Shown in pieces: positions 31,868-59,762 of a DNA stretch of 64,000 nucleotides. Source of the DNA: Astropecten irregularis (lineage: Eukaryota > Echinodermata > Asteroidea > Paxillosida > Astropectinidae); assembly GCA_963971285.1 (NCBI GenBank), contig OZ020244.1:19468001-19532000 (forward strand), written 5' to 3'. The notes below the pieces were generated by a model. The model saw nothing but the letters and a program-made list of their open reading frames with translations. It made no database searches and was not told where the DNA came from. The translations under genes and the position numbers were made by a program. Positions within the stretch are counted from its first letter, which is position 1. Each line of letters begins with the position of its first letter.

Positions 31868-32590
31868 TGCACTGGTGTCTTGATACCTCTATAGTGCCTC
31901 CAGTGCATTTGATGCCCCTGGTGCATTGATGCCTCTATAGTGCCTTTGGTGCCTTGATGCCTCTATGGTGCCTATGGTGCCTCTGGTGCCTTGATGCCTC
32001 TAGGGTGCCTCTGGTTCCTTGATGCCTCAATAGTGCCTCTTTTGCTTTGATGCCTCTATAGTGCCTATGGTGCTTTGATGCCTCTATAGTGCCTCTGGTG
32101 CCTTGATGCCTCTATACTGCCTCTAGTGCCTTGGTGTCTTGATGCCTCTATGGTGCCTCTGGTGTCTTGATGCCTCTATAGTGCCTCTGGTGCCTTGATG
32201 CCTCTGGTGCCCTGATGCCTCTATAATGCCTCTAGTGCCTTGGTGTCTTGATGCCTCTATACTGCCTCTAGTGCCTTGGTGTCTTGATGCCTCTATGGTG
32301 CCTCTGGTGTCTTGATGCCTCTATAGTGCCTCTGGTGCCTTGATGCCTCTGGTGCATTGATGTCTCTATAGTGCCTCTGGTGCCTTGATGCCTCTGGTGC
32401 CTTGATGCCTCTGGTGCATTGATGCCTATCTATAGTGCCTCTGGTGTCTTGATGCCTCTAGTGGTGCCTCTGGTGCCTTGATGCCTCTATGGTGCCTCTG
32501 GTGCCTTGATGCCTCTGGTGCATTGATGTCTCTATAGTGCCTCTGGTGCCTTGATGCCTCTAGTGCCTCAGATGTCTTGATGCCTCTAAC
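31868..32590 (+). repeat. 28-bp minisatellite, segment B
   Basis: Same unit family as 29370-30548, bounded by the same sequences (CTGCTGCACTxGTG before, CTAACCTGCTTTATGAAGCC after). It is about 450 bases shorter, with more GTGCCTTGGTGTCTTGATGC variants. Segment C lacks the array. Confidence 0.92.
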
Positions 32591-39457: not shown

Positions 39458-42432
39458 ATGTCGGACTCCGCACAGGTAAATAAATCTTTTGCTCATCTTT
39501 TGTTTGTCTGTTTTGTTTTGAATAAATTCATGAAAACGGGTTCTTTCGTGAAGTTTGAAGATAGAATTGGAATCAAGCAAAGTTGTACCGACGGAAAATG
39601 GCAGTAACGTTAGGGCTTTAGCAGACGACAAAATGGCCGAAATGTTTTCGATTAACATTTTGTCATGTAGGCCGACACACTTTAAAAGATTTTACGGGAA
39701 CTCACGAACAATATGGAAAAAGCGTTACCAGTTGCTTACTGGATGTAAGTTAATGGGTTACATTATCAACTTCAATCTGAGAGGGTGTTTAATATTAAAA
39801 GGCTAGGCCTACATGAAATTGATATGGCAAAGGTCACAGCGGAACACTGCATTCACACTTTGTCCGAACAATATGTACTGTGTAGGCATATAGATCAGGG
39901 CGGACATCTGGGTACTTTCATTCTCATAACTTGACAACCGATGAAAACTAACATGTAGATGGCGCAAGCTACGGACAAATCACGCACAAACCGCCCGTCG
40001 TCGAGAATTGTTTTCCGAATATTTTTGTCAAGAAGCAGAAATTGTGTTCTACACGACTTTCATTGTCTAGTCAAAGTTTTTCCTCAGACAATAATCCTTC
40101 TTTGATGTACCGTATACTAAGATTAAACAATTCTTGCAGCTTTTTGTCTTAAAAACCATACAACTTAAGTAAATGCTTTGTTTTCATCGGCTCCAAGGTT
40201 GGCGAGTTGGAATAAGGTCACTCTCAGCGCTGATCTAATAGGGCCTAGGCCTAATCCTGTGACAATTTGCGAAAACCCGACGCAATTTTTCTTATAAAAC
40301 ATAAAGAATGGTTTTGATCTTACCCCGAGATCATGTTTTCGGTCTTTGTTTGACTAATTTCTGGAAATACTCCATTTCAGGTGGGAATATTTTAACAGCA
40401 TGTTTCTACCAGCACTGTCTTCATATCCTGAAAGTTATGATATGTAAATCTGTGAACATTCATGTTTGGGTATGTTACCAATACTGTAGACCTGTACTGT
40501 ACCTTTAACAGTTAAAGGAGTAGTATCATACTTTGGTAGCATACCAAAACTGAAATCTTCACAGTTTTACCTATAACTTACAGGGTATAGGCCTAAAGAT
40601 GGTGATGGTAGAAACAAACCGTTAAAATGGTTCTATCTGAAATCCTTCATTTATCCAGAAAAGAGTCAAACCAGTGACCAAAATTATTTTTGATCTTTTA
40701 AAGATCAAAAATAAAAGAGAAAATACTTACGAAATGCTGTGACCATTGTCCAAAAATTTCTCAAAAGGTGGGCACCGTATGGGACTGAAATTTTCACAGA
40801 TGACTGTTACTGTATCTTCCTTGATATTTCTGCCCATGAATCTGTATTTCTTTGACAAAAACCAAAGTATGATATAACCTTTAAATTGTGTCTGTGACTG
40901 TACTGGTAATAGTGGTAAGGACTTAGTAAGGACTAAAGGTGTTTTTGACAATACAATGATGAATGATTGTTATTAGTTGATACGCCTCAAATGCAGCACC
41001 AGCCATTTGTGTTCTTTATCTCAAAACGCCCTCAGTCGGGCACCATTTTAGTCCCATGGGGTTTGTGCACAGGGTGTCAAAGTGATTGATGTCTGTCAGT
41101 GGAACTCTTTCTGGGTATATTTTGCTGGCACCGGCATTCTTCCTTCTTTTGCCATGCCCTTACTCTGATTGGTCAATTTGTAGTACTATGTCATGTTGTC
41201 AGAAACGTACCTCCGGCAAAATAACATTTAGAAAAAGAAAGCCGGCATAAATAAGTTATTTAAATATCATTTTGTTTTTTTTATTCAGACTGTCGACTCA
41301 TTATTAGCCTCGTTAGTAGGCATGGGATTTCAGCTGGACCGGTGCCAAGCAGCAGTGCATTGTGGGAAGCTCACCGTTCAGGAGGCAGTAGAGTGGTAAG
41401 TTGAAGCAGAATGGATTTTCCAGTGGTCAAAGTTCAGACATGACAATGGATTGGAGTCTGTCATTGTCTTCTTTTACCTCAGTCAAACTCGGTTACATGC
41501 GGCATGGAAAACAAATGACATTGCTAAGGTGGGCGGGGCTTAAGAGCAACGGTCTATGTTGTTGGGTCACAACAAGATGTGACAGCTTACTGTGGCTCGT
41601 TCATTTGAGGCCGTTAAATTTAATGGTTGAGTGTAGTCAAAGCTACCTACCCGACTCCTGTATTATTCACGTTCATTTATATGGCCTCCAACTGACTTAA
41701 ACTCAACAACCAAATTTGCTAAATTGCTAATCTGATTAATAATTTGCCATTTTATTGCTGATAAGTAGTTCTGTAAAATAGACACATACCGGTAACTGTT
41801 TAGTGTGAAGGCAAGGTCTTGTACTGTGTGTTTTTCCGGGACCAGAATTGACTGAATTTTCCCATCTTGAAATCAAATTTACCCATGGGATTTAAGGGAT
41901 AAGCTACCAATTGTGCTTCATTTGGAAACTGATGACAAGGGCAATTTAAAGACCATTTTTACTTTATCTTTGGCTTAGCAGGGATGTGAGACTTACAGAT
42001 TTTAATCTGATTTGAGATTTTTTGGTTTGGATTTTTAACTCTGAATTTCAGCTTTTTTGTACACCTGCTATGTACAAAAAAATATAGGAACTTTGAAATT
42101 TCAGCTGTTTGGTTGGTGTTTTCAAATTGTTTGGTGTGGCCACTCACTTCCCTGGTTTGGGGCCAATTTCACGAAGCACTAATATTGATCTTAAGTGTGA
42201 ATTAATCTTTAATAATTGCTAAGCAAAGTGTGATGTCACAGTACAAATCACTATGGTGATACTTACAACGCATCTTAAGATTAATCTTAGTGCCTTGTGA
42301 AATCCAGCTCAGGTCATAATGCATCCACTTTGCAAACTTTCTCTGTGTAGGCTCCTGCAGGGCCATGGTGCAGAAGAAGGCAGCATCCCTACGCGCTCTG
42401 CTCCGACATTGAGTCTCAACCAACAGCAAGAG
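39458..42432 (+). CDS. Exons 1-3: start and UBA domain
   Basis: Exon 1 (39458-39475) encodes only MSDSAQ before donor CAG|gtaaat. Exon 2 (41289-41395) gives a typical three-helix ubiquitin-associated domain: LLASLVGMGFQLDRCQAAV with the MGF loop at 18-20, then TVQEAVEW. The closing Trp codon is split and completed by exon 3 (42351-42432), LLQGHGAEEG, then a linker. UBA domains bind ubiquitin. A Met-start exon of six codons followed by the UBA is the layout also seen in UBXN1-like genes. Confidence 0.85.
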
Positions 42433-45400
42433 GTCAGTCTTGTAATCTACTCCAAGACGATTTTTCTACAGGTCTCCTAATGGCATCTTTAGCAACCATT
42501 GCTAGGGAGTATTATTATTTGGGTCATTCTACCAAGTTGGGGCACAATTTGTGATGGTTTCCCTGTTCATTAGTGAACTTGTAATTCTCTTACTTGATGG
42601 CTCACATTCCCTGTTCATCAAAGAGGGCTGGGTAGCTCAGTGGGGAAGAGCGCTGGTAAGGTATATTGGAGGTCGCTGGTTAGAATCCCACTCCAGTCAA
42701 TTTTTCTTCCTTCACTTTTCAATGACTTTAGGATTTGATAATAATTTGATAATGGTAATTTATCAAATGATGCAAGTAATAAACTGCTGCAAACTGCTCA
42801 TCGGCCAAAATAATGACCTGAAATCTATAAAATGCTTGGAGTTAGGAGGGCCTGATGCATTTCAATCCTAACAGGATCTTTATTGAAGGCTGAGTTAGTT
42901 ACAGATTTTTTTTTTTTCTCCCAGACAAGACCTACAACAGAAGTGCCTGACACCAACTATCTCCCGTTCAGCCTACCGCCTGTTGCTGCCCCCGGCCCCA
43001 CCAGCCTCCCTAGGGACTCCCAGACCCCTACCTCCCCTGGTAACACAGGGGATGACAGCAGCAAGTTCCAACAGCAGGACGTGGTGAGCAGGTTCTCCCT
43101 CTCCGAGAGGAAGCGACAGGAGAAAGACCGATGGGAGAAGGAGCAGAGAGAGAAGGCAGCATTGGAGGCACGTCAGGCCAGACAACAGGCGAAACAGGTG
43201 CGTGGTCAGCTTCATTTGATTTGAACCTTGCCTGATGAGCTTCTAGAGCACAGTATGAATAATTTGCTTTAATGGTACAACACAAGTTGTTGACTCAGGC
43301 GATACATGTATTACTATTCTGTAGGCATTCCCGAAATGGGTAGAGACTTGGAGATGAGCTTGTGGAGGTCTTTGATTGGTTGATAAGGATGCGGCGTTGA
43401 AGGTTACTTGGTGAGATGCAGTGATATTTAGCAGAACATTTGAGACGAAGGCACTGTGGTCTCCGCTGCTGCCTTTGATTTCCCTGGTCCTGAAATGATC
43501 AGTCTGTGCAAAATAAGCAGAATTGCTATCACGGTGTCTGATTTAGTACTAGTCTGATTATCATTAAATTACAAACCATTTATATGACATTTTGAAAACT
43601 CTTTGCTGTACGTTTAGGAAAGGAGTTACATCCTGAAGAATATCGAGGCGGACAAGGAAGCCAGGCATCAGCTAGGCAAGCTACCCACCAGCCCCAAGAG
43701 TACCAATCAACAGGAGGGCCCAATGGAGGTGTCTTCCTCTGCCCAGCTACCCACCAACCCCCAAGCACCTGCTACTGCTCCAAAACACCCCGATGAGAGC
43801 AGCACCTCAGCGTCTCCAGATACACAGAAGGCTAAGAGCACCCCGGCAATGTGCATGTTGCAGGTGTGTAAAAAAACTGAATATTGGTATGTTTTTCTGA
43901 GCATTTAACCTTGACCCCCCTAGACATTTATATTAAGGTCCTTCCTCAACCTGCCACACTGCTTAGGGGTACACAATCTGTTTAATTTCAAGAGCAACTT
44001 CATGAGAATGGTACACAACCCGTCAAATTTCAACAGGCTTTTGTTGTTGGGTTTGGGCTTAATATGTGACCCAGACTCAGTCAGAATGTTCACTTTCTTT
44101 CATGATGGGGGAGAAGCAAGTACCTAAAGGAAGGCATAGCTGTTTGCGGTGAAGGCATACCCCCTTGCGCTGTGATAATCAATTGCAGACATGAGGTCAC
44201 TGCTTGTCTGTATATCTTAGAGAGTTTTTATAGCTTTCAGGAATTTTGTCAGACCATGAAGGAATGAAATGGGTAATACTGATCTCTGTGATCTGTGGAA
44301 GTGCTATACAGTAATTTGAGCACACGGTTTTGAATGGATCCCTCTTTTGATTAAAACAAGAAACTGCGGTGGTGTCAGTATATTATTTGGTAATTTGTAC
44401 ACCGCCAATCATCTTTTATTGAAATCTGGGAAGCTGGAAAGCTAATCATGAGCAAAAGACCTGTTGGGAAATCCGGGACATGTTGTCCATGCCGAATATT
44501 CTTCTAAGTTCATGTTCCTTTCAGGAATATCACCCACCAAGCCGGAGTTGTAGTGCATTTAGATGGATAAACACCACCGCAGTTTCTTGTTTTAATCAAA
44601 AGAGGGCTCCATTCAAAACCGTGTGCTCAGATTACTGTATACGATGGACTAGTATCATTGGTAGCCTCTCTAAGGCTCTTGTGGATTGTGTCTTGCTTTT
44701 CATTAGATAAGATTACCATTGGGGCAGAGCGTACGTGAGAAGTTCCCTCCCTCAGCGACTCTCCAGTCGGTCGTGGATCACATTAAGAGCCAGCACAGTG
44801 ACCTAACGTGCTTCGACCTCATCCAGGTAAACATGTAGCTCTTTGAAACCATACAAGTTGAATCAGCAGTGGACTTTGGTAAAGACAAATGGACAACAAG
44901 CATGCTTTGGAAGTGAAGTTTGCCTTCATTCTGATAAGAATCTGTTTGACAATGAGAAGCTTATTGCTTCTTGCTAGAATGAGATTCTAGTGACCAATGA
45001 AATTACAGCGTGCGGCCAAATCACACACCTCAAATTTTTCTTTTTTTTGCAACAAGATGATACAAAACAGCATTCATTAACAAGTTTTTGGAAGTAGCTC
45101 CATGTGAAATTAACCACTTCTTTGAGTAATTGTTGGGCTGTGAAGAATCCAGAAGTGAAGTTCCAGAAAGAACTAGAGAGAAATGACCACCAAAATCTAG
45201 GCATCAATTTGGCATCGATTTGATTGATTCGCATCAGACGCAGTTTCTGACTATTGGACCAATTTGATTTTTTTTTTTAAAGAGAAGATTTCTTTGTGAC
45301 AACTTCCCTTTGATCTGTTTTCAACCTTTTACAGCCTTTTCCTCATCGTCTGTTCACGTCGACTGATCTGGGATCATCCCTAGAACAGCTCAAGTTAACC

Positions 45401-48400
45401 CCCAACGGCAACCTGGTTGCAAAGCTGGCCACTCAGGAACCTGCTGCCACACGTGAGATGTCATTGCAGTTGTCTTTACATACCGAAATAGAACTCTGAA
45501 CAGATTTACCTATAATTTACAGGGTATAAAGATGGTGATGGTAGAAACATACCCTTCAAATTGTTCTGCCTGAAATTCTTTATTTTTCGGAAAAGAGTAA
45601 AAGCAATTGAACAAAAACAATTTTGATCTTCGAAAGATCAAAAGGCCTGCGAAAAGATTTTAAAATAGCATTTTTCACTGTTTTCTGAAAAAGTGGGCAT
45701 TGTATGGGACTGGGAATTTCACAGATTGTACTGTATGTTTCTTGATATTTTTGCTCATGAATCTGTATTTCATCTGCAACCAGAGTATGAAATTACCTTT
45801 AAATTCAACTGAGGTTTTCTTTCATCTTTGCACTGACTTAATTTCGAGAAAAAATGATTGAAACTGCATATATTATGAAAGCCTCTGTTAGCCATTGATA
45901 ATCAGAAAATGCTTTATTTGAATGATTTATTATTTGACAGGCGGGATCAATTCACTGAAATATGCACTATTTTGCTTCTTCTTAATCAGCACAGCGACAA
46001 CCCAACATCAGTGACCAGGACCACACCAGGCCATCAGTGAGTATGGGAAGCCATGACCAACCCCGCCATGATGACCAGGAGAACCAGCCAGGACTCCCCG
46101 AGCAGCCATTGCCGCCATCCCTGGAGGACATCCTTCGTCAGCGGCCGGCTCCTCCCCATCCCTCCTCAAGCCGCCACACGTGGGGCCGGGGCAACGTCCT
46201 GAGCTCCGAAGAGCCCTCCAGCGGAGAAACAGGAGACGAAGAGCCCATGGAGGTGGGCGGGGAAGCGAGGATTCACGCCGACGGAGGGGGAGCATTGGAG
46301 GAGATGATCGGTGCATTAGATGAGATGGAAGAGGATGATGAGGCTGGATTGGGTGGTGCTGAGCAGGACATGCTCTGGGGAGCACCTGCACCTGAACGGC
46401 ACTTTATAGCAGGTCAGCTAACTATCATACCCTCATAGGAATGTTGTATGGCAGTCACTATTGCTAAGAGTTTGCACTGGGATGAGAGTAATATCAGTGA
46501 TAGCTTGGTGATCTCTTTGATGGGACATTTAGTCTTAGGAGGTTGTTTAGATATCACTCTCACTTCAACAAGAAGAATCATTACATTGAAGCCTTGACAA
46601 AGGGGCATTTATTGAATGAGTAGGCTACACTGAGTGAGCAAGGTTTAAAGGGAGCATATAGGATTTTTAAAAAACAATCTTTTTAAAAGACACTAAATCT
46701 TGATTTGATTGAAAAACCCAGCATCTGATGAACCAAGATTTCCCATGGTGACTGTTTGCACTGTTTACGAATTGTTGAGTCCATTTTCTGTCTCAAACTC
46801 AATTAATATTTTTTGGAGGCCTTGCAAATCCTATATGCTCTCTTTAAGTGATTGAAGCTTTACAGGTCATGTAAGACAATGTGTTGTTGTTTTTTTAAGC
46901 AAAGTGTCTTGCTCAAGAATGCAAGTACTCATAGCTGAACTTGAACTCGCCATCGGTAAGAATCAACCACATGACCTTGCGCTTTGATACACCTGGAATC
47001 TATTTCATGGAATCCGTAAGCAAGACCTTTCGGTTAGCGAAGAATTTCTAGGGTAACCGTGATCATTTTCTGCTAACGCGTTTCGTATGCATTCTGCAAA
47101 AATTCCTTCCTTACCGTTACCAAAAAGGAAACTCTTCCGTGAAATACGCTGACCGTAACCAAAAAATTCTGCTACCGTAAGCAAAGAATTTTTGCTAACG
47201 GTAACGGATTCCATGAAATTGGGCCCTGGCCAACCCAGCCACCGCACTCCAGCTTTATAATATGAAGTCAGAGGTCGATTTCACCAAACTTATCGTAACT
47301 TTTAGGACTAATGATGCATTGCAGTCCTACTGGGTTATCCTTTGTAACTCGAGTTATGATCGATCGCAGGGTTTTGTGAAATTGACCCCAGGGGCCGATT
47401 TCACAAACGCTTTGCTATCATCGCTAAAGCCCAAATCCATCGCTTAACGGAAAATCGATCGCTACTTTGCGTAGCAATCTTTAGTGAAAACGACTCCGGG
47501 ACTGTTTTGACCTCTGCAACCTGGAAGAATCTTCAATCCTACAAAACTGATTGAAAACATGAGTGGATTGAATTGAGCTGAATCATCCTAATAGGTGAAA
47601 AGCAACATGAAATGTTGTCATACTTTGAGGCTTGGAGTTTTCTTAAACACATAAAAATGTCCACTTGCAGGCAGGCGACAGCACGCCTGGGGAGATGGCA
47701 ACCGTCTCATGGACGGCAGGCGACCTCTCAATTTTGACTACGGATTTGCCCAGGGGAATGAGAGGCAGGATGGGGTGGAGGTACCCAGCCCACAGAGGGC
47801 CGGTAAGCATAAACAGACTCATCTATAATGCTGCTCTGCTGCCTAGATGAGTAAGCTATCTTCACTTGTCAGTTTGTCTCATTTTAGCCCTTTGAGAAAG
47901 ATCCCTGTAGGATTCGAAATGGTCAGGCTCTCTTCACTGTGATCATTTGATATATTTCAGGTCATCATTCTGGCTGATGAGCAGGGGCCAATTTCATGGA
48001 GCTGCTAAGCACAAAAATTTACTTAGCACAAAAATGTCTTGCCAAATAAAACCAACCACTGTTAAAAATTTAATTTGATGTTCATGGTCAACGAACAACG
48101 GCCAAAGAACAATTACAAGTGACACACAACACATGAACATTTGGTTGTCAACCCTGTTTTTATTAAGACGGAAATGTCATGCTTAACCAATTTTTGTGCT
48201 AAGGAGCGCCGTGAAATTGGCCCCAGTTTGCAGCAGTGTAATACTTGTATTCACCTTCATTTGTCAGTATTATGTTTTGGTTGGTGGTTTGTTCCACACA
48301 GCTGCAGCAGCGCTGTCTCGACTTGCCGCTGCTCCCGTGTCTCGAGTGCAGGCTCCGGTCTTCACCAGCGACAAGCCCATCACGGCCCTGCAGGACCTGT

Positions 48401-51400
48401 GCCTTCGCTGCGTCAGCAAGCGTATCGAGGGACGCAGCCCCCAGCCCATCACAACCCTGGATGCCCTGCCTCCTCAAGTAGCCAACCGGTTGGTGGAAGA
48501 ACTGAAGAAGTCGGGGACTCTGCGACCCAAGACGTTGAATCTGTTCTTGCCCTGGTGAGTGTATGAAAAAATAAAAAGAGAAGAATCATTTCAAAACCAT
48601 CAAGAATTCTATACCAGTGGCAGTTTTTCCCAAGAAGCTCTGCAGGTGCCGTCCAGTACCAGGGGCCAATTTCATAGAGCTGCTTAGCACAAAAAATTGC
48701 TTAGCGCAAGACTAGCTTGCCCAATAAAACAAACCACCATTGAAAATTCCATTGATATTCATGGTCAGCGAACAACAGCCAAAGACCAATTGCAAGTGAT
48801 ACACAACACATGGAAGTTTGTTTGTTAATCCACTTTTTACTAAAGACACAAATGTCATGCTTAGCGAATTTTGTGTAAGCAGCTCTATGAAATTTGCCCC
48901 TGATGTTGTCATCATAAGATATACATGTACTATCTTAGGAAGTTGGCATCCTACTCTCAAGATGTCACTACCTGAGATAAACTGTCATATGATGACAACA
49001 TCGTAGTTTTTGGATACCGTAATCCTAGATCATTATCACAGATTGTCGACAACTTACATTTAGATTGCCATTACCCTGACCTCAGTAACCTTTGTGTCTT
49101 TGGGTTTATAGTCAGATTGTGGCAGGCTCAAAACATGAGACATTTGCAATCAGTCTGTGCCTATCCGATGTGCCTCTCACGTATTGGAGAGTCTGACCTT
49201 AACTCGCTAGAAATCATTCATCTGAGGAGTTGGTTCTTGTCTGTTACCACAGCCATCTGCAACACCTAAGCCTGGACTGTTACAAGTACACCACCAATGA
49301 GCTGCTGCAGACAGCAAGACTTCACGTGCACATCACAAGGCTGAGTCTGAGTGCTTGCCCCTTGCTGACTGATCAGGCATTCGTCTCTATCAGTAGTAAG
49401 TACACCCCACGGCAGTGATGCATGTCGTCCATGAACGTCACAGGAAAATCCTTCATAGTGATATGTGCCGTCTTGGTCATGGGAACCAAACTTGTTTATT
49501 TTCAACAATTGCTCAGAGTTAATGGGGCCTGGGGTCGATTTCACAAAGCCTTTCGATCAATCGTAATTCGAGTTATGAAGGATAACTCATTGTATCCCAT
49601 GTAGGACTGCAATGCATCAGAAGTCCCATTGATATTAAGCCACGATGAGTTTGGTGAAATCGACCCCAGGATCTTTTTCAAATGCTTGAACAAAATAAAA
49701 AATGAAATCATCAATTGTTCACTTGTGCGACTGAGCGTGTTCCTCAAAATGTGGGCTGTATATTGCAAAGGGTGTATCTTTGGCACCGTGAGTAAAATGG
49801 AGGCTTTATGGAAATACTGTATTAGGATTTGAAGTTTTGCATGGTGGAGGGACTAGAACTAGGTAAGGCTTGCGGAGACACCATGTTTACTCTTTTCAGA
49901 AGGTGTGTGGTTCTGAGAAGGGCCAGTGGGAGAAATATCTCAACGTTTCGGTCAGTGTGCTCTGGCTCCGCAAGCCTTACCTAGTCATGGAAATATTAAT
50001 GACCTAAATGTCCCTAGTTATTGCCTTGGTTCCCCTTCAAGTATTCCAGTTGTCATTTAGCTTCCATGGAAATCCCCTTTAATAACAAGGTGTAAAACTG
50101 CCCCACCTGATTACCAACAAAGTTCAAGACCCATGCATGATGCTTCCTATAGGATAAAGAGGCGACAACAGTAGGATATCTGTACCCCAATACCAAGATA
50201 TTATTTGACTACACAAAGTGTACCCGATGTCCAGCCAAGCAGTGAAGTAACCCTGGAATTCCCAGGGCCCGATTTCATGTTACAGCCTATTTTTGTGCTA
50301 ACGGGCACTGCTACGCGTGAAATCTATTTCATGGAATCCGTAAGCAATTAATCCGTGATTATTTTCTGCTAATGCGCTGTCGTATGCATTCTGCTGAAAT
50401 TCCTTGCTTACCGTTACCAAAAAGAAAACTCTTCCGTGAAATACTTATCGTAACCCAAACAATTCTGCTACCGTAAGCATAGAATTTTTGGTAACGGTAA
50501 CGGATTCCATGAAATTGGGCCCAGATTACAGCTGCAGCCAGCAACTGTATATTCAATCACCATACATAGAGTACAAAGACATTTTCACTTTTGTGATGTC
50601 ATACGATTTTTGGTTTTGTAACAGGTTTGAAGAAGCTGCAGTATCTGAACGTGAGCAATAATAAACAGCTGACCGATGGAATCCTACACTCAATCAAAGG
50701 TGAAGTATTTCCCTGGACTCATTAGATATACAGTCATAGAAACTAATTCTTGTTTTGGGCATTTCCAAGGTTTGGGGACATTTTGTAACGTAAGTGACCT
50801 CTTTTTCGCATATTCGCATCCATTTTTAAGGAACCACAAGTGGTATATACTTGCTGATTCCAATATTCAGACATTTTTAGATTGGAGTCTTTCAAGAATG
50901 ATTGATCAAGGAGTAGGTCATAACCGTCAAAGTCACTTAACAGTCTTAAGTCTTGGCCTCAGTAAATCTCCACGCTGACTGTCCTTGTCAACTAGAGGCC
51001 TTTTCACACTATCTCCTTTTGATCCGTGTTGAAACCAACCTGGATCAACCCCGGTTCAGCCCGGCAAGTTTTTGAACCGGATCAAAGAGACGCAACATTC
51101 ACACTACGTTTATGGTGAACTGGCTCATACAACCCAGATCACGCCGCAAAGTGCAGTTTGGAACCGGGTTGAGATTTTCATCCCTGCTCCCTACCAGGGT
51201 TGATTTCGATCCGGCTAGGCCGTCCTACCAGGTGTGAAAAGAGTTGAAAAAATCTTGGGGTTCGATCCAGTTCCAACCTCAAGATTTTGGATAGTGTCAA
51301 AACCCCTTAGGGCTTAGCTATCAGTCACCAGTACTAAATACATCTGTATTCCTTTACCTTTTGTCATCAGACTTGTCCAACTTGGTGACCCTGGTCTTGG

Positions 51401-54400
51401 AAGACACGTCTGTGAGTGACACCGGGGTCCATGTCCTGTCCTCATCAACCATGGGGCAGCTCTCACATCTGAGTCTCAACAGGACCAACGTATCGGATAA
51501 GATGCTTCCGTACCTTGCAGGTATTAAGCTGTCTGTGTTACTGCATATGATAGATTGTTATTCGAGTCCTCAGTCATGTATGAGTGACAAGACTGAGTTG
51601 CAATCGTGGCCGCATTCAGTCTAGGTTCAGACTTTTGCATAACCTTTCTAGATTAAGATTAATTTTAGAAAACTTCTGAGGTGAATAAATCTTTTTTCTG
51701 GAATTGCTAAAAACAAAACATTTTTGGACTTCTGACTTAAAAAAAAAATTCATCCTGACCATTTTGAAAGAAATGTCATTGACGTATATGATAAAAAGAA
51801 TCTTTCTTTTAATGTCAATCACAGAGTCTTTCTGAATGGAAAATTATTTGGGATAATTAATACACCATTCTTATGTATCTTCAGAGGTTAAAAAGAATTA
51901 TCAGTTATGCTGAGATTTAAGGTTATTTCATACTTAAGTTTTTGTCAAAGAAATGCAGATTCATGAGCAAAACTATCAGGGAAGATACATTAACAGTGAA
52001 ACAGTCATCTGTGAAATTTCAAATCCCACACGGTGCCTACCAGTACTTTTTGAGAAAACAGTGAAAAATGCTCACGGTATTTTCAAATCTATTCACAGGA
52101 GTTGTTATCGCCCTGATATCAAAACTGTTTTTGGTCATTGGTTTTTCTCTTTTCTGGATAAATACAGCATTTCAGGCAGAACAATTTTAACAGTATGTTT
52201 CTACCATCACCATCTTAATACCCTGTAAGTCATAGGTTAATCTGTGAAGATTTCTATTTTGGTATGCAACCAAAGTATGATAGTACCTTTAATGGAAACA
52301 TGCTGAAATCCTAGCCCAAATCAGATTTGTGTCTTGTTATTCAAGAATTTCTTTCCTCGAAAATGCCTGAGTTATCCATGTACAGCTAGAAACTGTTTTT
52401 TTTTTGTGGTTTTATTTCAGTGTTTTATAATTTGAAGAGCCTTGGAGTGGAACAGACCAAGGTGAGACATGAAAGTAGAATGGATTGTACAAAGTAAACA
52501 ACAAGCTAAACTTACTACAGTCGACTCCCGTTACTACGAGCTCGGAAATAACGACAACCCGGATTTAGCGAGCATATTTCCCCAGTCCCGATCAATTTGT
52601 GCACATTACTATGGGGAAATATTTGGTTATTAAGAGCATGGGCATTACGAGATTCCGGGTATAACAACGAATTTGGCTGACCAAATGCGAGCAAAAACAT
52701 TGTTCTCAATCCATTTACAACGACATCTTTTCAAACCTTTTGTCGGCGATCTTTCAAGTTCCAATTCTGGCGACAGCTTCATCACGAGTGTGCCGATCTT
52801 AAATCTATTCAATGGGATGGCGTGAATTAGCGAACACAGAGCCATGCGTGTCAAGTCTCTAATCCCCCCGCTGCGGTTTCCTTAGCCTGACTAGGTTCAT
52901 GACTGCGGCACCATGCTGCTGAGTAGGCATTGTAAACGGACAATAGGGGCGCCCAGGAGATAATCAGTGTAACTTAGCTTTGTAAGAAGAGATTTAAAAA
53001 GTATTGCCGCTGGAACATCAGCAGCAGTGGGGTGTAATTGCTCCAAATTGTCGTCCGTTGTGGTAATTAAAAATATATTTAAAAATCGCACCCTGTCTTT
53101 TGAAAAAGGGTGATCGATAAAATGTTCAGCAGACGTCGCACGGTAGGCCTAATTAAGGGTCATCTGCGGTTGGCTGGGGGATCGCGGACATCTTTAACGC
53201 CGATGAAACTGATCTGTTTTATCGCCTGACCCCCGATAAAACCATGGCTTGTAAGGGAGAGCAGTGCCATGCTGGTAAAAAAAAAACCGGTTTAATAAAT
53301 AATTGAACTATCCCACAGAAATCATGTGACGCCAAAAATAATAATAAATAGTCAGAAGCGTAAAAAATAATATTCCCCTTTTTAATGTAATATTATAGCG
53401 CCCTCTCTTGACTTATATTATAACAAATTAAAAAACGGAAGCGAAGTCACCCGGCACGATTTGTGCGAGTATTAAAAGACTTTAGAGGATGTGTGGTCCT
53501 GAGAAGGACCGATGGGAGTAAGTTCTTGACGTTTCGACCAGTGTGCTCTGGTTGTCCTCAGGAGAGAGAGAGTTCGACAGAGCACACTGGTCGAAACGTA
53601 GAGTTTTTTCTTACTCTCATCGGTCCTTCTCAGGACCACACACCTTCCAAGAAGAGTGTCATACATGGTGTCTCCGCAAGTCTTACCCAATTCTAGTCTC
53701 TCCACCATGCAAAACTTCAAATCCTTCTTAATTTCTACTTCGTTTTCCCAAGGTGTCGAGACTGGAAGGTATTGAGAACCTAGTGAGTCTGCACTCTCTA
53801 AACATTGCCAGGAACGGTATCGCTGGTCCTGCACTGGAACGGCTTGGTCGTCTGCCTGAACTGACAGCTCTCAATGTGATGATGTTACAAGGCCTGTCTG
53901 GGGATGAGGTGCTACACCGCCTGCAAGGTTGGTGTCTAATAAGTCTCATCCCTCCTTGGGGAGTCAGGTTGGCGTAGCTGTTCTTTCCTCGCCTTTCCCT
54001 CTGGCGGACCAGGTTCAAGTCCGGCTCGGTCCACAAGTGGATTGGGTTTTCAGTCCCTACCTGATTCTGTGGGTTTTACCCAGAATATTACTCTGGGGTT
54101 TTCCTCCCACCTCTAAAACTGTATCTTGTTCTCATCATCTTTACATAAAAGGTTTCATCAGGCTTTTGAGTTACAGTGCCTAGGGTGCTTTTGAGGAATC
54201 CTTGGTTTCATTACCAGAAATAAATAAATAAGATGTGGACACAATTTTGTTGGATGACACAGTATGAGGTTGGTGGGGTAATGTGTCACAAGGTGACAAA
54301 CACGTACCCACTGAAGTGTGCAGGGTCATTCCACTCGGTTGGAACACATTGACAATCACTCTTCAAATTGATATTGTTTCTCTCTATGCACCTTAATCCT

Positions 54401-57400
54401 TCCGCCCGGGAAGCTGCTACAGCAGTTCACCTCACGGCCTCAGAATATTCATGATTGCTTTGTTTTTTTCCATTGAAATGCATTGAATGGGGGAACTGTC
54501 TGGAACAAGAGGTTCTGTGAACATTGATTGTCCCAAAAAACTCTCATTGTGGTATATTTTCGAGCAAGATCAACATTTTTCGAGCAGACCGCAATCTCTG
54601 CGAGCTCTGAACACAGATGCATGACATTGATTACGTCCACCTGGAATTCAGGCTATTCTTCTGCGGTATTCAACCACTGTGTGTACGCATTGTTTACACT
54701 GAGCTCCCTGCACATATACCGGGGGGTAGCCTGGCCAGATGACCACTATTTGACCTGTGGCTGATGGTGAGGCTACTAAAAACAGAGCCCCAAAAAAGCC
54801 CCGGGCTGAAGGGGTTGAACAGTCTTAATTAAGAATTATTATAAAGCAACATACAATAAAACATCTTTACAACTATTTCTAATTTGCACATTGATGAATT
54901 ACTTTGGCATGATGATTCTTATTCAAATTCCTGCAGTGTTTCTATACAGCAATGAACTTCTTGCAATGATTTTTGTTGTTCTTTTGTGTACACATACCTT
55001 CTCAGTCACAGATTTATGTCCCCTATTTCCCTGGTCACTCTGTCCCCCTTTGTTCTGATTCTCTCATCCATTTCATGTATCTTCACCTGCATGTTCTTGT
55101 ACTCTTGTAGCCTTTGACAAAGATCCTGCTAGCCTCGTAACGCTTCAGACAATCCTAACTCTAAGCATTTTGTATATTTCAGGTCATTATTTTGGTTGAT
55201 GAGCAGTTTGCAGCAGTTTATTACTTGCACAGTTGTTTTCACTGTTTCTTGGATAATTTTATGTTCTGAAAGCTGTGTGTTTGTTGTTCGTATCCAGGCT
55301 TGGAACTGAAGCAGCTGCAGTTGCCAGACAGACATACAACGACAGATAGTGGATTGTGCTGCATTGCAGGTAATATGGCATTTATATAGCAATCTTACAC
55401 ACAAGATGGGTATGACAATGCTGTACACTTTTTACATTCCTGAAACAATCTCAGCTCCCTGGGGAGTATACCCAGTACAGCCTTGTGCTACCATAAGGTG
55501 CACAGAGGCTAATCAAACCACAAAGCCATCTCTACCCTCGCAGGTACCCATTTACACCTGGGTGAAGAGGAGCAATATGTTATAAAGCGTCTTGCCCAAG
55601 GACGCAAGCACCATTAGCCCATGGCTGGATTCGAACCCACAATCTGTAGATTGACCACAAGATCTTGAGTACGACACGCCAGACCACTCGGCCACGGCAC
55701 CCCACATAAACATCACTCATCTCTTGAGGGTCCGTGGCTAATGGATAATCGCTGTATTGTTTGCGTTGGGCAGGTTTTTAGTCATGCTCAAGATCTTATG
55801 TACAATTCCAGGCAGATCGTGAGTCCAAGCCTGGCGGTAGGGACAGCAATGCCTGCATCCATAATGAAATAGGCATGCTGTCATTTGCATTTTTAATTCG
55901 CTAAAATCACTGTTTTATCCCTATCGGTTTTAACCATTTGTGTCTGGACGCTCTAAAATGGTTTTATATTTAAAACTGTTTTATCTGCCGCTAAAACTGG
56001 AAGTTAAAACTGCCTGGGAGGAGGGTTTAGCGCTTAAAACCGATCAAGTTTACTGCTTAAACGCTGTTGGGACAGAATAACTTTCCAACATCCTGTTTCA
56101 GCGCAGCAAATCCTGGCAGCTGGTTACGTAACACCTGTTGTGGCGCGCTTGTTTATATCCAGCACACAGATCAATCCGCGCGCTTTATTTTATAACTGGA
56201 AGCAAATAAAACCGTTTTAACTGCTTTAATTAAAGCAAATTAAAATGGTTTTAACTGCAAACAGTAAAACGCTGTATGGACGCAACGACTTACCCCCTGC
56301 GGTTGCCGGGCGGTTTAACTCAATTGGTTTTAAATAAAAGGCTGTCTGAACGTACCCATGGGCAGTTCTATGAAAGCCAGTCCAAATGTTTGATCGCGGT
56401 GCTCATACCCCTAGCCTTGGTCAAGGCATTCGTCATTAGTCATACTGCGTGCATTGGTCTCCAGCTCCAGCTCCAGCTGTCCTAGTTCTTGACTCTGATC
56501 TTGTCTCTATTTAACTATTGTCTTGGCTTCCTTTTGTTTTCAGGAATGCCACTAGTCGCGTTAGATCTGTCCGATTACATCCACATCACCGATCAAGGCA
56601 TCCATCACATTGCCGATATGACAAGGTAACGTACTACCCCTTCTTTCCTTTATTTGTTTATACGTCTTTAATAATGGCCTTCATGTAGTCTTGCAGCTTT
56701 CCTGCAAGTACCAGCTGACCAGGGTTCGATTTCACAAAGCCCTATGATCGATCGAAATTCAAGTTACAAAGGATAACCCATTGCATCCTATGTAGGCCGG
56801 CTGCAATGCATCATAAGTCCTACGATTGATAGTAAGTTTGGTGAAATCGACCCCAGGCCTGTTTAGGCAAACAGAGTACCGGTAGTAATGTGGGGGGTTG
56901 GTTTTTCAGAGAGAAGGGGTGGCATTGAGTGACTCGTCCGCAGCCCACTGATTACGGCATTGTGAACGCGAATCCCGACCTATATGATATAACGGACATC
57001 ACAGCATCCAGTTCTTCAGCGGCCTGAAGAAGGCTAGCAGTACCAGCACCCGAAACATCGTTACCAGCAACACAACATCGCGTGACTTTGATCACCTTTC
57101 TGCTTATCTGTATCTACCGCGATGAACAACCATTTCCTTTCTGTTGATTGCTTATCTTGTTATTATCTTATTTTCTTCTAGTCTCACCAAGTTGTCGCTC
57201 AACAATACCAAGATAACGGACCTTGCCCTGACGTACATCCAAGGTAGGATTTGGAACAGATCTTAGAGGGCCCTCTCTGAATCTGAGAAAGATTGTTATG
57301 CATGGAATCTTGGAAGATGTTGATAAAAGAGGAAAGCAATCCTCAGAACTATTTTATCTTTGATGAAAGACATTTCAGAAATACGACTTCAAACTGCAGA

Positions 57401-59762
57401 ATTTAGAGCATTTTTTATTGTTATCCTTTGATGACAGGATTGAGTGAGCTAAAGGAGCTTCATTTAGATCGTACATCCATCACTGATGCTGGGGCTATGG
57501 CTATTGGATGTCTCAGTAAACTACAGGTGCTCAGCATGGCTGCCACACAGTAAGACAAAAACCTCTAATCCCTTGTCATTTGTCACTAGCAGACTTCCCC
57601 AGTCCAACACTGTATGGTATGACTCTATGGATTTTCTCAGTGGTGGGCCAAGTTAGTCCAGCAGTAAATCTCATCAGGAGTCATAGAACCAGCACCAATT
57701 TCATGGAGCTATTAAGCAGAGTTGTTGGTTCGAGTCGGTGACTTGGACTCAAGTCTGACTCGAGTCACCAATCTTTGTGACTTGAGACTTGACTTGACTT
57801 GGAACAAAATGACTCGAGACTTGACTTGACTTGAGAAAATTTGACTTGCGACTTTACTTGACTTGACTTGTGAAAATTTGACTTGGTTACAACTCTGCTA
57901 TTAAGCACCAAACAAATGCTTAGCACAAAATGTCTTGCTCAATATTAACACAAACCACCTTTAGAAATTCCATTTGATATTCATGGTCACCGAACAAAAG
58001 CCAAAAAACAATCACAAAAGATATACAACACGTAAATTTCATGGTTAGCAAATTTATGTGCTAAGCAGGGCCATAAGATTGGCTCCTGATCTCACCAGTA
58101 TGGAACAGTTGAAAATTCAACGATCCTAGAAAATGGATGTTGGTAGATTTGGAATGGTAATGGTTGATAATTCGATATCATTTTTGATGTTAGAATAAAG
58201 GTTGTTCATCATGGAATATGGTAAGAGCAAAGCGTTGGATGGCTCACGATGTTGGCTGAAAGGTAGGGACGTTTTCGGCTGCAGACTGTAAGCCTTTATC
58301 AAGCTGATGAAGACATTTGGTTTCTTGCTAAGTTTTGGCTGTGCTTGGTATTGATCCTTGATTGGTGTATGCTCCGTCCAATCCGGAGACAGCATGCTTC
58401 TGATTGGTGGCTTGGGCATTATATATTATTAATGTTGTTTACTATCTTTACTCAAAAGGCCAGTCAGATGCCATACTTCCATTACCTGACACTATCCAAT
58501 ATATCTCGCCTCCATACAAATGATAATGCTCAACAAGTTGTAACATGCTCAACCCATTGTGTTTATATCCCCTAGCATCAGAAATCGGTTTCTGTGCTCC
58601 CAGACGCTGAACAAATGCCAACATCTGACCAGGCTGAATCTGAGCAGAACAGACGTGTCTAACAAAGGTAAGAGCTAAACCTCTCATTCTGTACACTTCC
58701 TGAAGAGTCCTCTAAATTGTTGACCCTTCGTTGACATTCTTCCAAAGATTTGAAGAAGATACCTTAATTTCTTTCATTATTTCTTGTGTAGTGCATCAAG
58801 ACTTTTGTGTGATGCACTATATAAAATTGTGTTGTTGTTGTTATTATTATTAGATAAAGGTATAATACATGATTGGTAAAGGCACTCACAGATTGTCTGA
58901 TCAAACATGTACATGAAATAATATATAGACATTTTGAGCTCAATCAGACATCCGAGTCACGAGAAAATAGCGAAAACCGACTAAATTTTTCTTATAAAAC
59001 ATAAAGAATGGTTTTGATCTTACCACAAGATCAAAGCTGTTTTCGGTCTTTGTTTTACACCTTTCTTTACACCTTTTCAGGCGGTAATATTTTAACGGTA
59101 TGTTTCTACCATCACCATCTTTATATCCTGAAAGTAGTAGTTAAATCTGTGAACATTTCTGTTTGGATATTTTACCAATCCTGTACTGTACCTTTATTAA
59201 GGCAAAATAATTGTCATATTACACAGCTCTCCGACACTAGACACACACCGTATGTGGTCATTTGGAAACTAAATTTCAAGCTATTTTGTTCAAGCTGACA
59301 TGGCCAGCTTAATAGTAAGGTGTGGTTTTGTATGTTCAAAGTACTGGACTTTTTCTGATGGAGGTTGTAGTGTTTGTTTTTTGTATAGATTCATTTACCA
59401 GTGGTTCTGCAATGGATTTTCAGACCATAAATATCCGGATTTGTCTTACTGTAAAGTTCCATGTATACGGCGCACCCCAAACTTTTGACATCAACCGGCA
59501 GAAAAACAAAAGTTCAGCCATGGATGACCAGAAAAATATGGAACACTGCAGCGCTCATTTTTCTCAGCTCATTTGCGATTTGTATTTTATTTTTTTTCTT
59601 TGTCAAGGTATGGAGGCCCTGCGCTTGCCACACCTGTCCCTCCTCAATCTGGACTCTACCTGTGTCACAATGGATTGTGCCAGTCGTATGCATTGTTGTC
59701 CTGAGTTGAAGTTGGTCCGTACCAATAACCTCAGAGTCTACAGGGGTGAAGATGATGATTAA
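39458..59762 (+). CDS. UBA-UBX-LRR protein, 976 residues, 21 exons
   Basis: Not recognised as a named gene. Exons: 39458-39475, 41289-41395, 42351-42432, 42925-43197, 43618-43863, 44707-44826, 45335-45452, 45990-46412, 47671-47802, 48302-48554, 49253-49395, 50625-50699, 51371-51520, 52421-52461, 53753-53927, 55298-55369, 56544-56625, 57182-57243, 57438-57549, 58576-58667, 59608-59762. They sum to 2931 bases in one unbroken frame. Order: UBA (7-46), charged coiled coil (about 122-180), UBX (about 236-318), acidic Pro-rich linker (322-506), BC-box-like helix (535-544), leucine-rich repeats (about 580-976), acidic tail GEDDD. The N-terminal part resembles UBXN1-type p97/VCP adaptors; the C-terminal part resembles ribonuclease-inhibitor-like LRR ubiquitin-ligase receptors. 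Role in p97-linked protein turnover is inference. Confidence 0.88.
40516..40880. mobile_element. TTAA-type MITE, complete 365-bp copy
   Basis: TTAA at 40512-40515 and 40881-40884 flank AGGAGTAGTATCATACTTTG and its complement CAAAGTATGATATAACCT. Palindromic core TTTTTGATCTTTTAAAGATC. A truncated relative (about 40290-40504) abuts it on the left. Confidence 0.8.
42627..42740 (+). repeat. tRNA-derived SINE
   Basis: GGCTGGGTAGCTCAGTGGGG (box A) and GGTTAGAATCCCACTCCAG (box B), then the non-tRNA part TCAATTTTTCTTCCTTCACT and TTTCAATGACTTTAGGATTTG. Same family as 60590-60750 and 62720-62890. Lies in the intron before exon 4. Confidence 0.7.
42925..43863 (+). CDS. Exons 4-5: Pro-rich linker and charged coiled coil
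   Basis: Exon 4 (42925-43197) is Pro/Ser/Thr-rich, then turns strongly helical and charged (SERKRQEKDRWEKEQREKAA, then LEARQARQQAKQ). Exon 5 (43618-43863) continues ERSYILKNIEADKEARHQLG, then a Pro/Ser/Thr stretch, and ends AMCMLQ, which opens the UBX fold. The pattern ERxxIxxxIEADxxxR is typical of the segment just before the UBX domain in UBXN1-like proteins. Confidence 0.85.
44707..45452 (+). CDS. Exons 6-7: UBX domain
   Basis: With the end of exon 5 these exons form the ubiquitin-like UBX fold: CMLQ-IRLPLGQSVREKFPPSATL, SVVDHIKSQHSD, FDLIQ-PFPHRLFTSTDLGSS, LEQLKLTPNGNLVAKL. R244 in strand 1 and the S3-S4 loop are the p97-contact positions; here the usual FPR loop reads F284-P285-H286 followed by Arg. 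Length (about 80 residues) is normal for the domain. Confidence 0.85.
45450..45798. mobile_element. TTAA-type MITE copy starting at the exon 7 donor
   Basis: Contains GATGGTGATGGTAGAAACAT, TTTTGATCTTCGAAAGATC, AAAGTGGGCATTGTATGGGA and ends GTATGAAATTACC then TTAA (45799-45802). The left end is eroded close to the exon 7 donor. Confidence 0.65.
45990..47802 (+). CDS. Exons 8-9: acidic, disordered linker
   Basis: Exon 8 (45990-46412) is rich in Pro, Ser, Glu and Gly and contains the acidic run ALEEMIGALDEMEEDDEAG and the nearby DNA-like short motif SLEDILRQRP. Exon 9 (47671-47802) is basic at the start (RRQHAWGDGNRLMDGRRP) and has no recognised domain. Acceptors were chosen to keep phase; a shifted acceptor in exon 8 meets stops. 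Confidence 0.75.
48302..48554 (+). CDS. Exon 10: BC-box-like helix and LRR cap
   Basis: Encodes residues 508-590 plus split codons. A535-L-Q-D-L-C-L-R-C-V544 fits the elongin-C-binding BC-box pattern (small residue, Leu, three any, Cys, three any, hydrophobic). LPPQV at 562-566, followed by ANRLVEEL, fits the hydrophobic-Pro-any-any-hydrophobic core of a Cul2 box. The same exon then enters the LRR cap (TLNLFLP). Such motifs are short, so function is uncertain; they may simply cap the LRR solenoid. Confidence 0.8.
49253..59762 (+). CDS. Exons 11-21: leucine-rich repeat domain and C terminus
   Basis: Eleven short exons (41-175 bases), many with phase-1 borders, encode about a dozen repeats of the ribonuclease-inhibitor/F-box-LRR type: HLQHLSLDCYKYTTNELLQT, ITRLSLSACPLLTDQAFVSI, LQYLNVSNNKQLTDGIL, LVTLVLEDTSVSDTG, LTKLSLNNTKITDLAL, LKELHLDRTSITDAGAM. 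The last exon gives LPHLSLLNLDSTCVTMD and ends RVYRGEDDD before TAA at 59760-59762. I saw no AATAAA between 59763 and about 60500. Confidence 0.85.
49850..49990. repeat. Inverted-repeat element, AGGTAAGGCTTGCGGA ends
   Basis: Left AGGTAAGGCTTGCGGA near 49862 and complement TCCGCAAGCCTTACCT at 49967-49982. It shares GGTGTGTGGTTCTGAGAAGG and GTCAGTGTGCTCTGG with the larger hairpin at 53488-53642. Confidence 0.65.
50996..51308. mobile_element. About 313-bp inverted-repeat MITE
   Basis: Left AGGCCTTTTCACACTATC, right complement of AGGGGTTTTGACACTATC. The interior repeats GGTTGA, AACCGG and CCGGATC words in both orientations. It ends about 60 bases before exon 13. Confidence 0.65.
51921..52288. 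mobile_element. TTAA-type MITE copy in intron 13
   Basis: TTAA at 51917-51920 and 52289-52292; interior words CAGATTCATGAGCAAAA, TTTTGAGAAAACAGTGAAAA, ATTTCAGGCAGAACAATTTT and GTATGTTTCTACCATCACCA. Confidence 0.78.
53488..53642. repeat. 155-bp hairpin next to exon 15
   Basis: Left GTGTGGTCCTGAGAAGGACC, right GGTCCTTCTCAGGACCACAC, with inner arms ACGTTTCGACCAGTGTGCTC. Followed by TGGTGTCTCCGCAAGTCTTA, related to 49862. The repeat-derived sequence runs to within a few tens of bases of the exon 15 acceptor at 53752. Confidence 0.8.
53960..54240 (+). repeat. SINE-like element just inside intron 15
   Basis: GGTTGGCGTAGCTGTTCTTT, then a box-B-like GGTTCAAGTCCGG, a body with GGGTTTTACCCAGAATATTA and CTCTGGGGTTTTCCTCCCAC, and a 3' tail AAATAAATAAATAAG. 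Starts about 30 bases after the exon 15 donor. Confidence 0.6.
55430..55703 (-). repeat. tRNA(Ser/Leu)-like SINE
   Basis: Minus strand reads GGGGTGCCGTGGCCGAGTGG (box A) and GTGGGTTCGAATCCAGCC (box B), with an extended variable arm, then a tail part shared with 61030-61303 (AGGTACC, GATGGCTTTGTGGTTTGATT). No complementary acceptor stem, so not a functional tRNA. A degraded tail piece lies near 27090-27170. Confidence 0.72.
56721..56857. repeat. Foldback hairpin, GGGTTCGATTTCACAAAG family
   Basis: Left AGGGTTCGATTTCACAAAGC, right TTTGGTGAAATCGACCCCAGG, with AAGTTACAAAGGATAACCCA in the left arm. Relative of 49530-49669. Confidence 0.7.
57690..58085. repeat. Foldback hairpin split by a hAT MITE
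   Basis: Left CCAATTTCATGGAGCTATTAAG to 57716 and the continuation from 57906 (CACCAAACAAATGCTTAGCA ... GTGCTAAGCAGGGCC) belong to the GGGGCCAATTTCA..TTAGCAC family; between them sits the 181-bp insertion. Confidence 0.75.
57717..57897. mobile_element. 181-bp hAT-type MITE (GACTTG-rich)
   Basis: Termini CAGAGTTG and CAACTCTG; perfect 8-bp target duplication CTATTAAG at 57709-57716 and 57898-57905. The interior is almost entirely GACTTG/GACTCGAGTC words. Same family as 4560-4685. Located in intron 19. Confidence 0.88.
58865..59195. mobile_element. TTAA-type MITE, second subfamily
   Basis: Starts AAAGGTATAATACATGATTG, with TTTTGATCTTACCACAAGAT, AGGCGGTAATATTTTAACGG and GTATGTTTCTACCATCACCA, and ends TACTGTACCTTTATTAA. 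Related: 5585-5935 and about 40290-40504. Confidence 0.65.

What the first reader, a model, noticed from the sequence alone, without database searches (positions are those of the whole stretch)
39458..59762. One protein joins p97-adaptor modules (UBA, UBX) to a BC-box-like LRR receptor half
The 21-exon reading gives UBA, coiled coil, UBX, acidic linker, BC-box-like helix and LRR in 976 residues without a frame break. In established biology, CRL2 with an LRR receptor (LRR1) and the UBA/UBX adaptor UBXN7 act together with p97 in replisome unloading, but as separate proteins. A single chain with both halves would be a substrate receptor that delivers directly to p97. I do not know this architecture from a named vertebrate gene. 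The functional link is inference.
Basis: partly seen in the sequence, partly recalled or inferred. Interest (0 to 1): 0.8.

Follow-up and report, generated by a model that had tools for sequence, protein, structure and literature searches.

The report
Unnamed p97 adaptor with LRR receptor half
A sea-star gene really does encode one protein that joins p97-docking parts to a repeat domain resembling ubiquitin-ligase receptors; the same unstudied protein occurs from fungi to fish and lizards, so it looks like an old but overlooked link between tagging proteins and pulling them apart.

Summary
Twenty-one exons with GT-AG introns give one 976-residue frame. Relatives in sea stars, an urchin, a sea cucumber and a crinoid align over 99-100% of it. 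UBX and LRR also share one chain in hemichordates, molluscs, a brachiopod, sharks, fish (zebrafish si:ch73-173p19.1), amphibians and lizards, and in a sponge and several fungi. The tree separates these groups cleanly: one old family, not a local fusion or a misread gene. My searches found no paper on it.

New: the linker carries two motifs, HTWGRGNVL and HAWGDGNRL, that match the p97-binding SHP motif of Derlin-1 (RHNWGQGFRLGDQ) in its W, GxG and L and their spacing.

The BC-box claim is supported, not proven. Box plus first LRR match yeast Rad7 (E 3.7e-5); the box alone does not (E 0.17). The order is that of ZYG11B, not of LRR1. The box Cys is kept in 15 of 17 invertebrates and 13 of 14 fungi but in 0 of 12 vertebrates.

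Most likely a p97 adaptor (UBA, UBX, twin SHP) whose LRR half selects clients; cullin recruitment is plausible outside vertebrates.

The parts
39458..39475 (+). exon 1 (aa 1-6, start codon)
   Evidence: N-termini of relatives agree
41289..41395 (+). exon 2 (aa 7-41), most of the UBA
42351..42432 (+). exon 3 (aa 42-69)
42925..43197 (+). exon 4 (aa 70-160), charged helix/coiled coil begins
43618..43863 (+). exon 5 (aa 161-242), rest of the helix, start of UBX
44707..44826 (+). exon 6 (aa 243-282), UBX
45335..45452 (+). exon 7 (aa 283-321), end of UBX with FPH loop
45990..46412 (+). exon 8 (aa 322-462), acidic linker with SHP-like motif 1
46175..46201 (+). SHP-like motif 1, HTWGRGNVL (aa 384-392)
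   Evidence: compared with Derlin-1
47671..47802 (+). exon 9 (aa 463-506)
47682..47708 (+). SHP-like motif 2, HAWGDGNRL (aa 467-475)
   Evidence: its second Gly is invariant in 25 of 25 rows of alignment A5
48302..48554 (+). exon 10 (aa 507-590), BC-box-like and cullin-box-like helices
48385..48414 (+). BC-box-like helix ALQDLCLRCV (aa 535-544)
48466..48492 (+). Cul2-box-like LPPQVANRL (aa 562-570)
   Evidence: consensus in PMC4878042
49253..49395 (+). exon 11 (aa 591-638), first LRRs
50625..50699 (+). exon 12, LRR
51371..51520 (+). exon 13, LRR
52421..52461 (+). exon 14, LRR
   Evidence: alignment
53753..53927 (+). exon 15, LRR
55298..55369 (+). exon 16, LRR
   Evidence: alignment
56544..56625 (+). 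exon 17, LRR
57182..57243 (+). exon 18, LRR
57438..57549 (+). exon 19, LRR
58576..58667 (+). exon 20, LRR
59608..59762 (+). exon 21, last LRR, acidic tail, stop

Best explanation
The gene encodes the sea-star member of an ancient, unnamed family of p97/Cdc48 adaptors. The UBA binds ubiquitin; the UBX and two SHP-like motifs dock on p97 N-domains, a multi-point grip like that of Shp1/p47; the C-terminal LRR solenoid selects the client. The helical cap before the LRR looks descended from an Elongin-C-binding box of the Rad7/ZYG11B kind, so in fungi and invertebrates the protein can perhaps also sit in an Elongin C-cullin ligase: it would bind a client, have it ubiquitylated and pass it to p97 without changing hands. 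Shown: the gene, its single chain in relatives, its conservation, its motifs. Inferred: every binding event, the cullin link, the clients. Likelihoods: p97 adaptor about 0.85; of that, cullin receptor in sea stars about 0.45.
For: UBX 2.9e-17, and UBX in 30 of 30 members scanned. Profile of helix + UBX from 10 members against PDB: best FAF1 9.2e-16, then UBX domains named UBX domain-containing protein 4 and 2, UBXD7 and p47. SHP: HTWGRGNVL and HAWGDGNRL against the Derlin-1 C-terminal peptide RHNWGQGFRLGDQ (PMC2374959, passage); W242 and L248 of Derlin-1 address the SHP pockets of p97 (PMC9814400, passages), and both window motifs keep W-G-x-G-x-x-L with that spacing. At least one aromatic-(x)-GxGxx[LM] motif in 32 of 44 family proteins, two in 17, against 3.5% of shuffles with one; canonical FxGxGxxh in 10 of 44. 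In a linker with mean majority 0.25, the Gly of site 2 is kept in 25 of 25 and its Leu in 24 of 25 rows, 12 fungi included at the Gly. Box: BC consensus with Ala allowed first in 14 of 17 invertebrates, 13 of 14 fungi, 7 of 13 vertebrates, against 4.6% of random slots (6.7% in the LRR half); Rad7 match of box plus first LRR 3.7e-5. Descent: each group with more than one row is one side of a branch at 99-100% support, in an unrooted tree of 38 rows.
Against: No binding data. The window's UBX loop reads FPH, where 24 of 30 aligned members have FPR or FPK (my count). Its UBA is below Pfam's cut-off; UBA_7 was found in only 18 of 30 members, and 5 of 30 rows lack that part in the alignment. Neither window SHP motif fits the textbook F-x-G-x-G-x-x-h; 12 of 44 proteins, 11 of them fungi, have no motif by the looser pattern; a PDB search with 35 residues around motif 2 found nothing up to E 10. 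The window's BC box begins with Ala, outside the published S/T/P. The box alone gives Rad7 first but only at E 0.17, next to an unrelated chain at 0.21; the top hit of the longer profile is FBXL2, through LRRs, and no stretch of ZYG11B passes on its own. The Cul2-box Pro stands in 13 of 17 invertebrates but only 2 of 14 fungi and 0 of 13 vertebrates.
Confidence: 0.6

Rival explanations
1. Plain p97 adaptor with an LRR client- or partner-binding domain; the BC-box-like helix is only the N-cap of the LRR solenoid and recruits no cullin. (This and the next share the 0.85 for a p97 adaptor.)
For: Vertebrate rows lost the box Cys (0 of 12) and the Cul2-box Pro (0 of 13) while keeping UBX and LRR; box alone scores E 0.17.
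Against: Cys and Leu of the box are kept in nearly all invertebrate and fungal rows, more than a cap should need; the published BC consensus allows C, S or A (PMC4878042, passage) and LRR1 itself has Ala there (PMC8682755, passage).
Confidence: 0.4
2. Full single-chain ligase receptor: an Elongin C-cullin substrate receptor that recruits p97 itself and hands over what it ubiquitylates.
For: BC-like and Cul2 boxes in the window, before the LRR as in ZYG11B and with the same residue spacings inside each box; Rad7 profile match; UBX and SHP-like motifs in the same chain.
Against: As listed under the best explanation; nothing shows ligase activity; vertebrate members depart from both boxes.
Confidence: 0.45
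3. Two neighbouring genes wrongly joined.
For: No RNA from this species was available here.
Against: Single-chain relatives across animals and fungi, including short contigs that hold the whole frame.
Confidence: 0.02
4. F-box/LRR protein (SCF receptor), as some automatic names in fungi say.
For: The LRRs match FBXL2 among many other LRR proteins; names such as F-box/LRR-repeat protein 16.
Against: No F-box family in any of 30 members at E up to 0.01.
Confidence: 0.03

Closest known systems
zebrafish si:ch73-173p19.1 and unnamed orthologues (hypothetical proteins)
   Same: Whole architecture, UBX + LRR in one chain; same tree
   Different: Nothing known of function; 0 papers hold the name in my search
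yeast Shp1 and p47/p37
   Same: UBA, UBX and two SHP boxes in one adaptor for Shp1 (PMC10641518, passages)
   Different: SEP domain (none found here); no LRR or BC box (recalled)
Derlin-1 SHP motif
   Same: W-G-x-G-x-x-L with the same spacing; motif 1 also shares R-H-x before the W
   Different: Derlin-1 is a membrane protein; only the motif is shared
FAF1/FAF2 helix-UBX
   Same: Charged helix before the UBX; best PDB match
   Different: No UAS domain found here; the helix part of the match is loose
ZYG11B / ZER1 (CRL2 receptors)
   Same: VHL box then LRR (PMC13201589, passages); LRR_Zer-1 model hits 6 of 30 members
   Different: ZYG11B ends in ARM repeats and has no UBX or SHP (recalled)
yeast Rad7 (Rad7-Elc1-Cul3)
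   Same: Box and first LRRs align, E 3.7e-5
   Different: No UBA, UBX or SHP (recalled); its partner Rad16 was not looked for
LRR1 and UBXN7
   Same: Ligase receptor with LRR and VHL box; UBA/UBX adaptor
   Different: LRR1 is PH-LRR-VHL box-zinc finger; UBXN7 has a UAS domain (PMC9377798, passage)

Membership tests
UBX-domain p97 adaptors | UBX domain above curated cut-off | tested here: met
   63.1 bits against 21; UBX in 30 of 30 members at E up to 0.01
UBX-domain p97 adaptors | F-P-R loop at the p97 cleft (recalled) | tested here: inconclusive
   Window FPH; FPR or FPK in 24 of 30
UBX-domain p97 adaptors | binding to p97 N-domain | not testable with these tools
   needs protein
SHP-motif cofactors | F-x-G-x-G-x-x-h (PMC8181520) | tested here: not met
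   0 in the window; met in 10 of 44 family proteins
SHP-motif cofactors | Derlin-1 form W-G-x-G-x-x-L | tested here: met
   aa 386-392 and 469-475 (Derlin-1 letters)
CRL2 VHL-box receptors | BC box (S,T,P)LXXX(C,S,A)XXXphi (PMC4878042) | tested here: not met
   Window ALQDLCLRCV: Ala first, rest fits; strict consensus in 11 of 17 invertebrates, 11 of 14 fungi, 6 of 13 vertebrates
CRL2 VHL-box receptors | Cul2 box phiPXXphiXXXphi | tested here: met
   LPPQVANRL in the window; pattern somewhere in the aligned slot in 13 of 17 invertebrates, 2 of 14 fungi, 5 of 13 vertebrates
CRL2 VHL-box receptors | Elongin C and Cul2 binding | not testable with these tools
   needs protein
LRR1 | order PH-LRR-VHL box-zinc finger | tested here: not met
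   Box lies before the LRR
UBXN7/FAF | UAS domain | tested here: not met
   None in Pfam results up to E 1
p47/Shp1 (SEP adaptors) | SEP domain | tested here: not met
   None in Pfam results
F-box/LRR (FBXL) | F-box | tested here: not met
   0 of 30 members at E up to 0.01
si:ch73-173p19.1 family | collinear homology and place in one tree | tested here: met
   alignment of 30 and tree of 38 rows

The most novel reading that the evidence does not exclude
A cullin substrate receptor with its own p97 docking arm (UBX plus twin SHP), older than the split of animals and fungi: one chain that picks a client, has it ubiquitylated and feeds it to the unfoldase, kept in fungi and many animals, changed in vertebrates to a p97-only adaptor, and missing from the human set of UBX proteins (recalled), which may be why nobody has studied it.
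Probability: 0.4. Interest if true: 0.82.

Novelty: new variant of a known kind. Interest (0 to 1): 0.6.

Why it matters
p97 adaptors and cullin substrate receptors are usually separate proteins that must meet on the client. A family that holds both kinds of part in one chain, found in animals and fungi and sitting unnamed in the zebrafish genome, gives a direct test of whether tagging and extraction can be coupled in cis. It also suggests that lists of p97 adaptors drawn up from human and yeast miss an old class.

Tried and rejected
The two-gene reading was rejected on relatives. LRR1-like and F-box readings were rejected on domain order and on absent Pfam hits. ZYG11B as a significant match was downgraded: no stretch of it passes on its own. 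The strict SHP scan gave 0 in the window and in 22 of 30 members; I then compared with the Derlin-1 form, which I first recalled and then checked in a paper. A PDB search with 35 residues around motif 2 found nothing. Amphioxus, cnidarians and insects do not appear among the named rows I saw; this is not proof of absence.

Literature: (UBX domain + LRR + echinoderm) gave 6 papers, by titles and abstracts unrelated; two searches gave 0; one search listed 9, none whose title or abstract start describes this family. Of all papers cited I saw only passages or listings, never a whole text.

Full report
What is in the window. On the + strand from 39458 to 59762 I rebuilt 21 exons by hand. Exon ends were picked to keep the frame (drafts were wrong at some ends), so the real test is agreement with relatives found later. 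Pfam gives UBX (2.9e-17, 237-311), several LRR models to 2e-13, and a UBA that scores 2.3e-5 but below its cut-off. The window lies in an unnamed 475.7 Mb genome; 11 of 13 matches of the LRR half there are in the window and two are weak, so no second copy was seen.

Is the fusion real. The first database search returned 11 proteins. Six are echinoderm proteins that cover 99-100% of the query in one chain: Patiria 68%, Acanthaster 66%, Asterias 60%, Lytechinus 44%, Holothuria 42%, Antedon 39%. The other five are LRR proteins covering at most 33%. A second search, with the LRR half of a consensus, returned 194 proteins, 120 listed. By my count 115 of these 120 carry UBX and LRR together; named ones come from echinoderms, hemichordates, molluscs, Lingula, sharks and rays, ray-finned fish, amphibians, two lizards and Mucor. 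Seventeen of the 120 lie on contigs of 2.7-4.6 kb, which must be transcripts if their genes have about as many introns as this one (inference). A third search, from Mucor, returned 204 proteins, 120 listed: many mould relatives of Mucor, Jimgerdemannia, two mortierellas, the chytrid Rhizophlyctis, the sponge Corticium, the coelacanth and a flatfish (places in the fungal tree recalled); the rest of the list is LRR proteins without UBX, several with bacterial names. In an unrooted tree of 38 rows, fungi, vertebrates, echinoderms, hemichordates and molluscs with the brachiopod are each one side of a branch at 99-100% support; the sea star sits with Patiria and Acanthaster. Descent from before the animal-fungus split is the simplest reading; the searches cannot show where the family was lost.

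Two p97-docking motifs in the linker. Over P0001 residues 300-500 the mean majority fraction is 0.25 in 25 rows. Past the end of the UBX, Gly456 is the one fully invariant column there (25 of 25), and Leu459 is kept in 24 of 25; Ala493 and Arg497, nearer the box, are kept in 24 and 23. Gly456 and Leu459 belong to H-x-W-G-x-G-x-x-L, present twice in the window at aa 384-392 and 467-475. The textbook SHP pattern is F-x-G-x-G-x-x-h (PMC8181520, passages). The window does not meet it, but 10 of 44 family proteins do, among them five molluscs at site 2 and both mortierellas. The window form equals that of Derlin-1, whose C-terminal peptide is given as RHNWGQGFRLGDQ (PMC2374959, passage). There W242 and L248 address pockets of the p97 N-domain (PMC9814400, passages), and both window motifs have the same W-to-L spacing. 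Of 44 proteins 32 have at least one aromatic-(x)-GxGxx[LM] motif and 17 have two, against 3.5% of shuffles with one; the 12 without are one lizard and 11 fungi, in most of which the aligned Gly and Leu remain. UBA, UBX and two SHP boxes is the set of Shp1 (PMC10641518, passages). The helix-UBX part matches FAF1 best (9.2e-16); in FAF1 that helix braces Ufd1 (PMC13356908, passages), but the helix part of my alignment is too loose to claim the same here.

The box before the LRR. One sequence of aa 505-640 finds yeast Rad7 first in the PDB (E 0.0022). A profile of that region from 14 members finds FBXL2 first, through LRRs (1e-9), then Rad7 through box and first LRR (3.7e-5); ZYG11B reaches 9.4e-4 over its whole sequence, with no single stretch passing. 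The box alone reaches only 0.17 for Rad7, next to an unrelated chain at 0.21, so the box by itself is not significant. By position, the BC-box Leu is kept in 17 of 17 invertebrates, 13 of 14 fungi and 12 of 12 vertebrates with a letter there. The Cys four residues on is kept in 15 of 17 and 13 of 14, but is Ala (9), Ser (2) or Thr (1) in the 12 vertebrates. The fungal exception is P0159, whose gene model looks disturbed there. The published consensus allows C, S or A (PMC4878042, passage) and LRR1 has Ala there (PMC8682755, passage), so vertebrates are not excluded; but the Cul2-box Pro stands in 13 of 17 invertebrates, 2 of 14 fungi and 0 of 13 vertebrates. In ZYG11B the contacts include L18, C22, L26 and F50, P51, V54, L58 (PMC13201589, passages); the window has L536, C540, V544 and L562, P563, V566, L570: the same spacings within each box.

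How it probably works. Shown: the chain, its conservation and its motifs. Inferred from known families: UBA to ubiquitin, UBX and SHP to p97, LRR to client. Open: Elongin C and cullin recruitment. The likely cycle is client binding by the LRR, ubiquitylation by a recruited or separate ligase, and loading into p97 held by UBX and SHP on neighbouring N-domains, as seen for p37 (PMC10641518, passages).

Membership. It meets the UBX-adaptor feature and the Derlin form of the SHP motif. It does not meet the strict BC-box consensus in the window (Ala first), so I do not file it as a CRL2 receptor, though it may work like one. It is not LRR1, UBXN7, p47 or an F-box protein by domain content or order.

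Novelty and score. The parts are known; the combination, its spread and its absence from the papers I could search are new. The proteins sit in databases as hypothetical or under placeholder names, so this is a new variant of a known kind. Interest 0.6: surprising to specialists and directly testable, but all binding is inferred.

Noticed in passing
window 21023-21400 +: Open frame with an M20 peptidase start (PF01546, 2.3e-11), probably an exon of a neighbouring peptidase gene.
   Followed up: partly
window 2155-2562 -: Open frame with a weak phosphopantetheine-binding match (PF00550, 2.4e-4).
   Followed up: no
window 53617-53662 +: Histone 3' UTR stem-loop match just over its cut-off (34.4 against 34) inside intron 14, in what looks by eye like an inverted repeat with a relative near 49850-49980; possibly a mobile element with a histone-type hairpin.
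   Followed up: no
window 60629-60701 -; 42626-42699 +: tRNA-Thr (ggt) call and a weak tRNA match in intron 3; the second, and a stretch near 55615-55700 on the - strand, look by eye like tRNA-derived SINEs.
   Followed up: no
window 19432-20086; 26523-27067; 29413-30544; 31913-32588: Minisatellites, among them a 41-base unit in 16 copies at 97% and long arrays of a 28-base unit.
   Followed up: no
rows P0083, P0120: Two relatives, in Leucoraja erinacea (no UBX listed) and Labeo rohita (UBX listed), are named dynein regulatory complex subunit 6 in databases, apparently an LRR-based misnaming.
   Followed up: no
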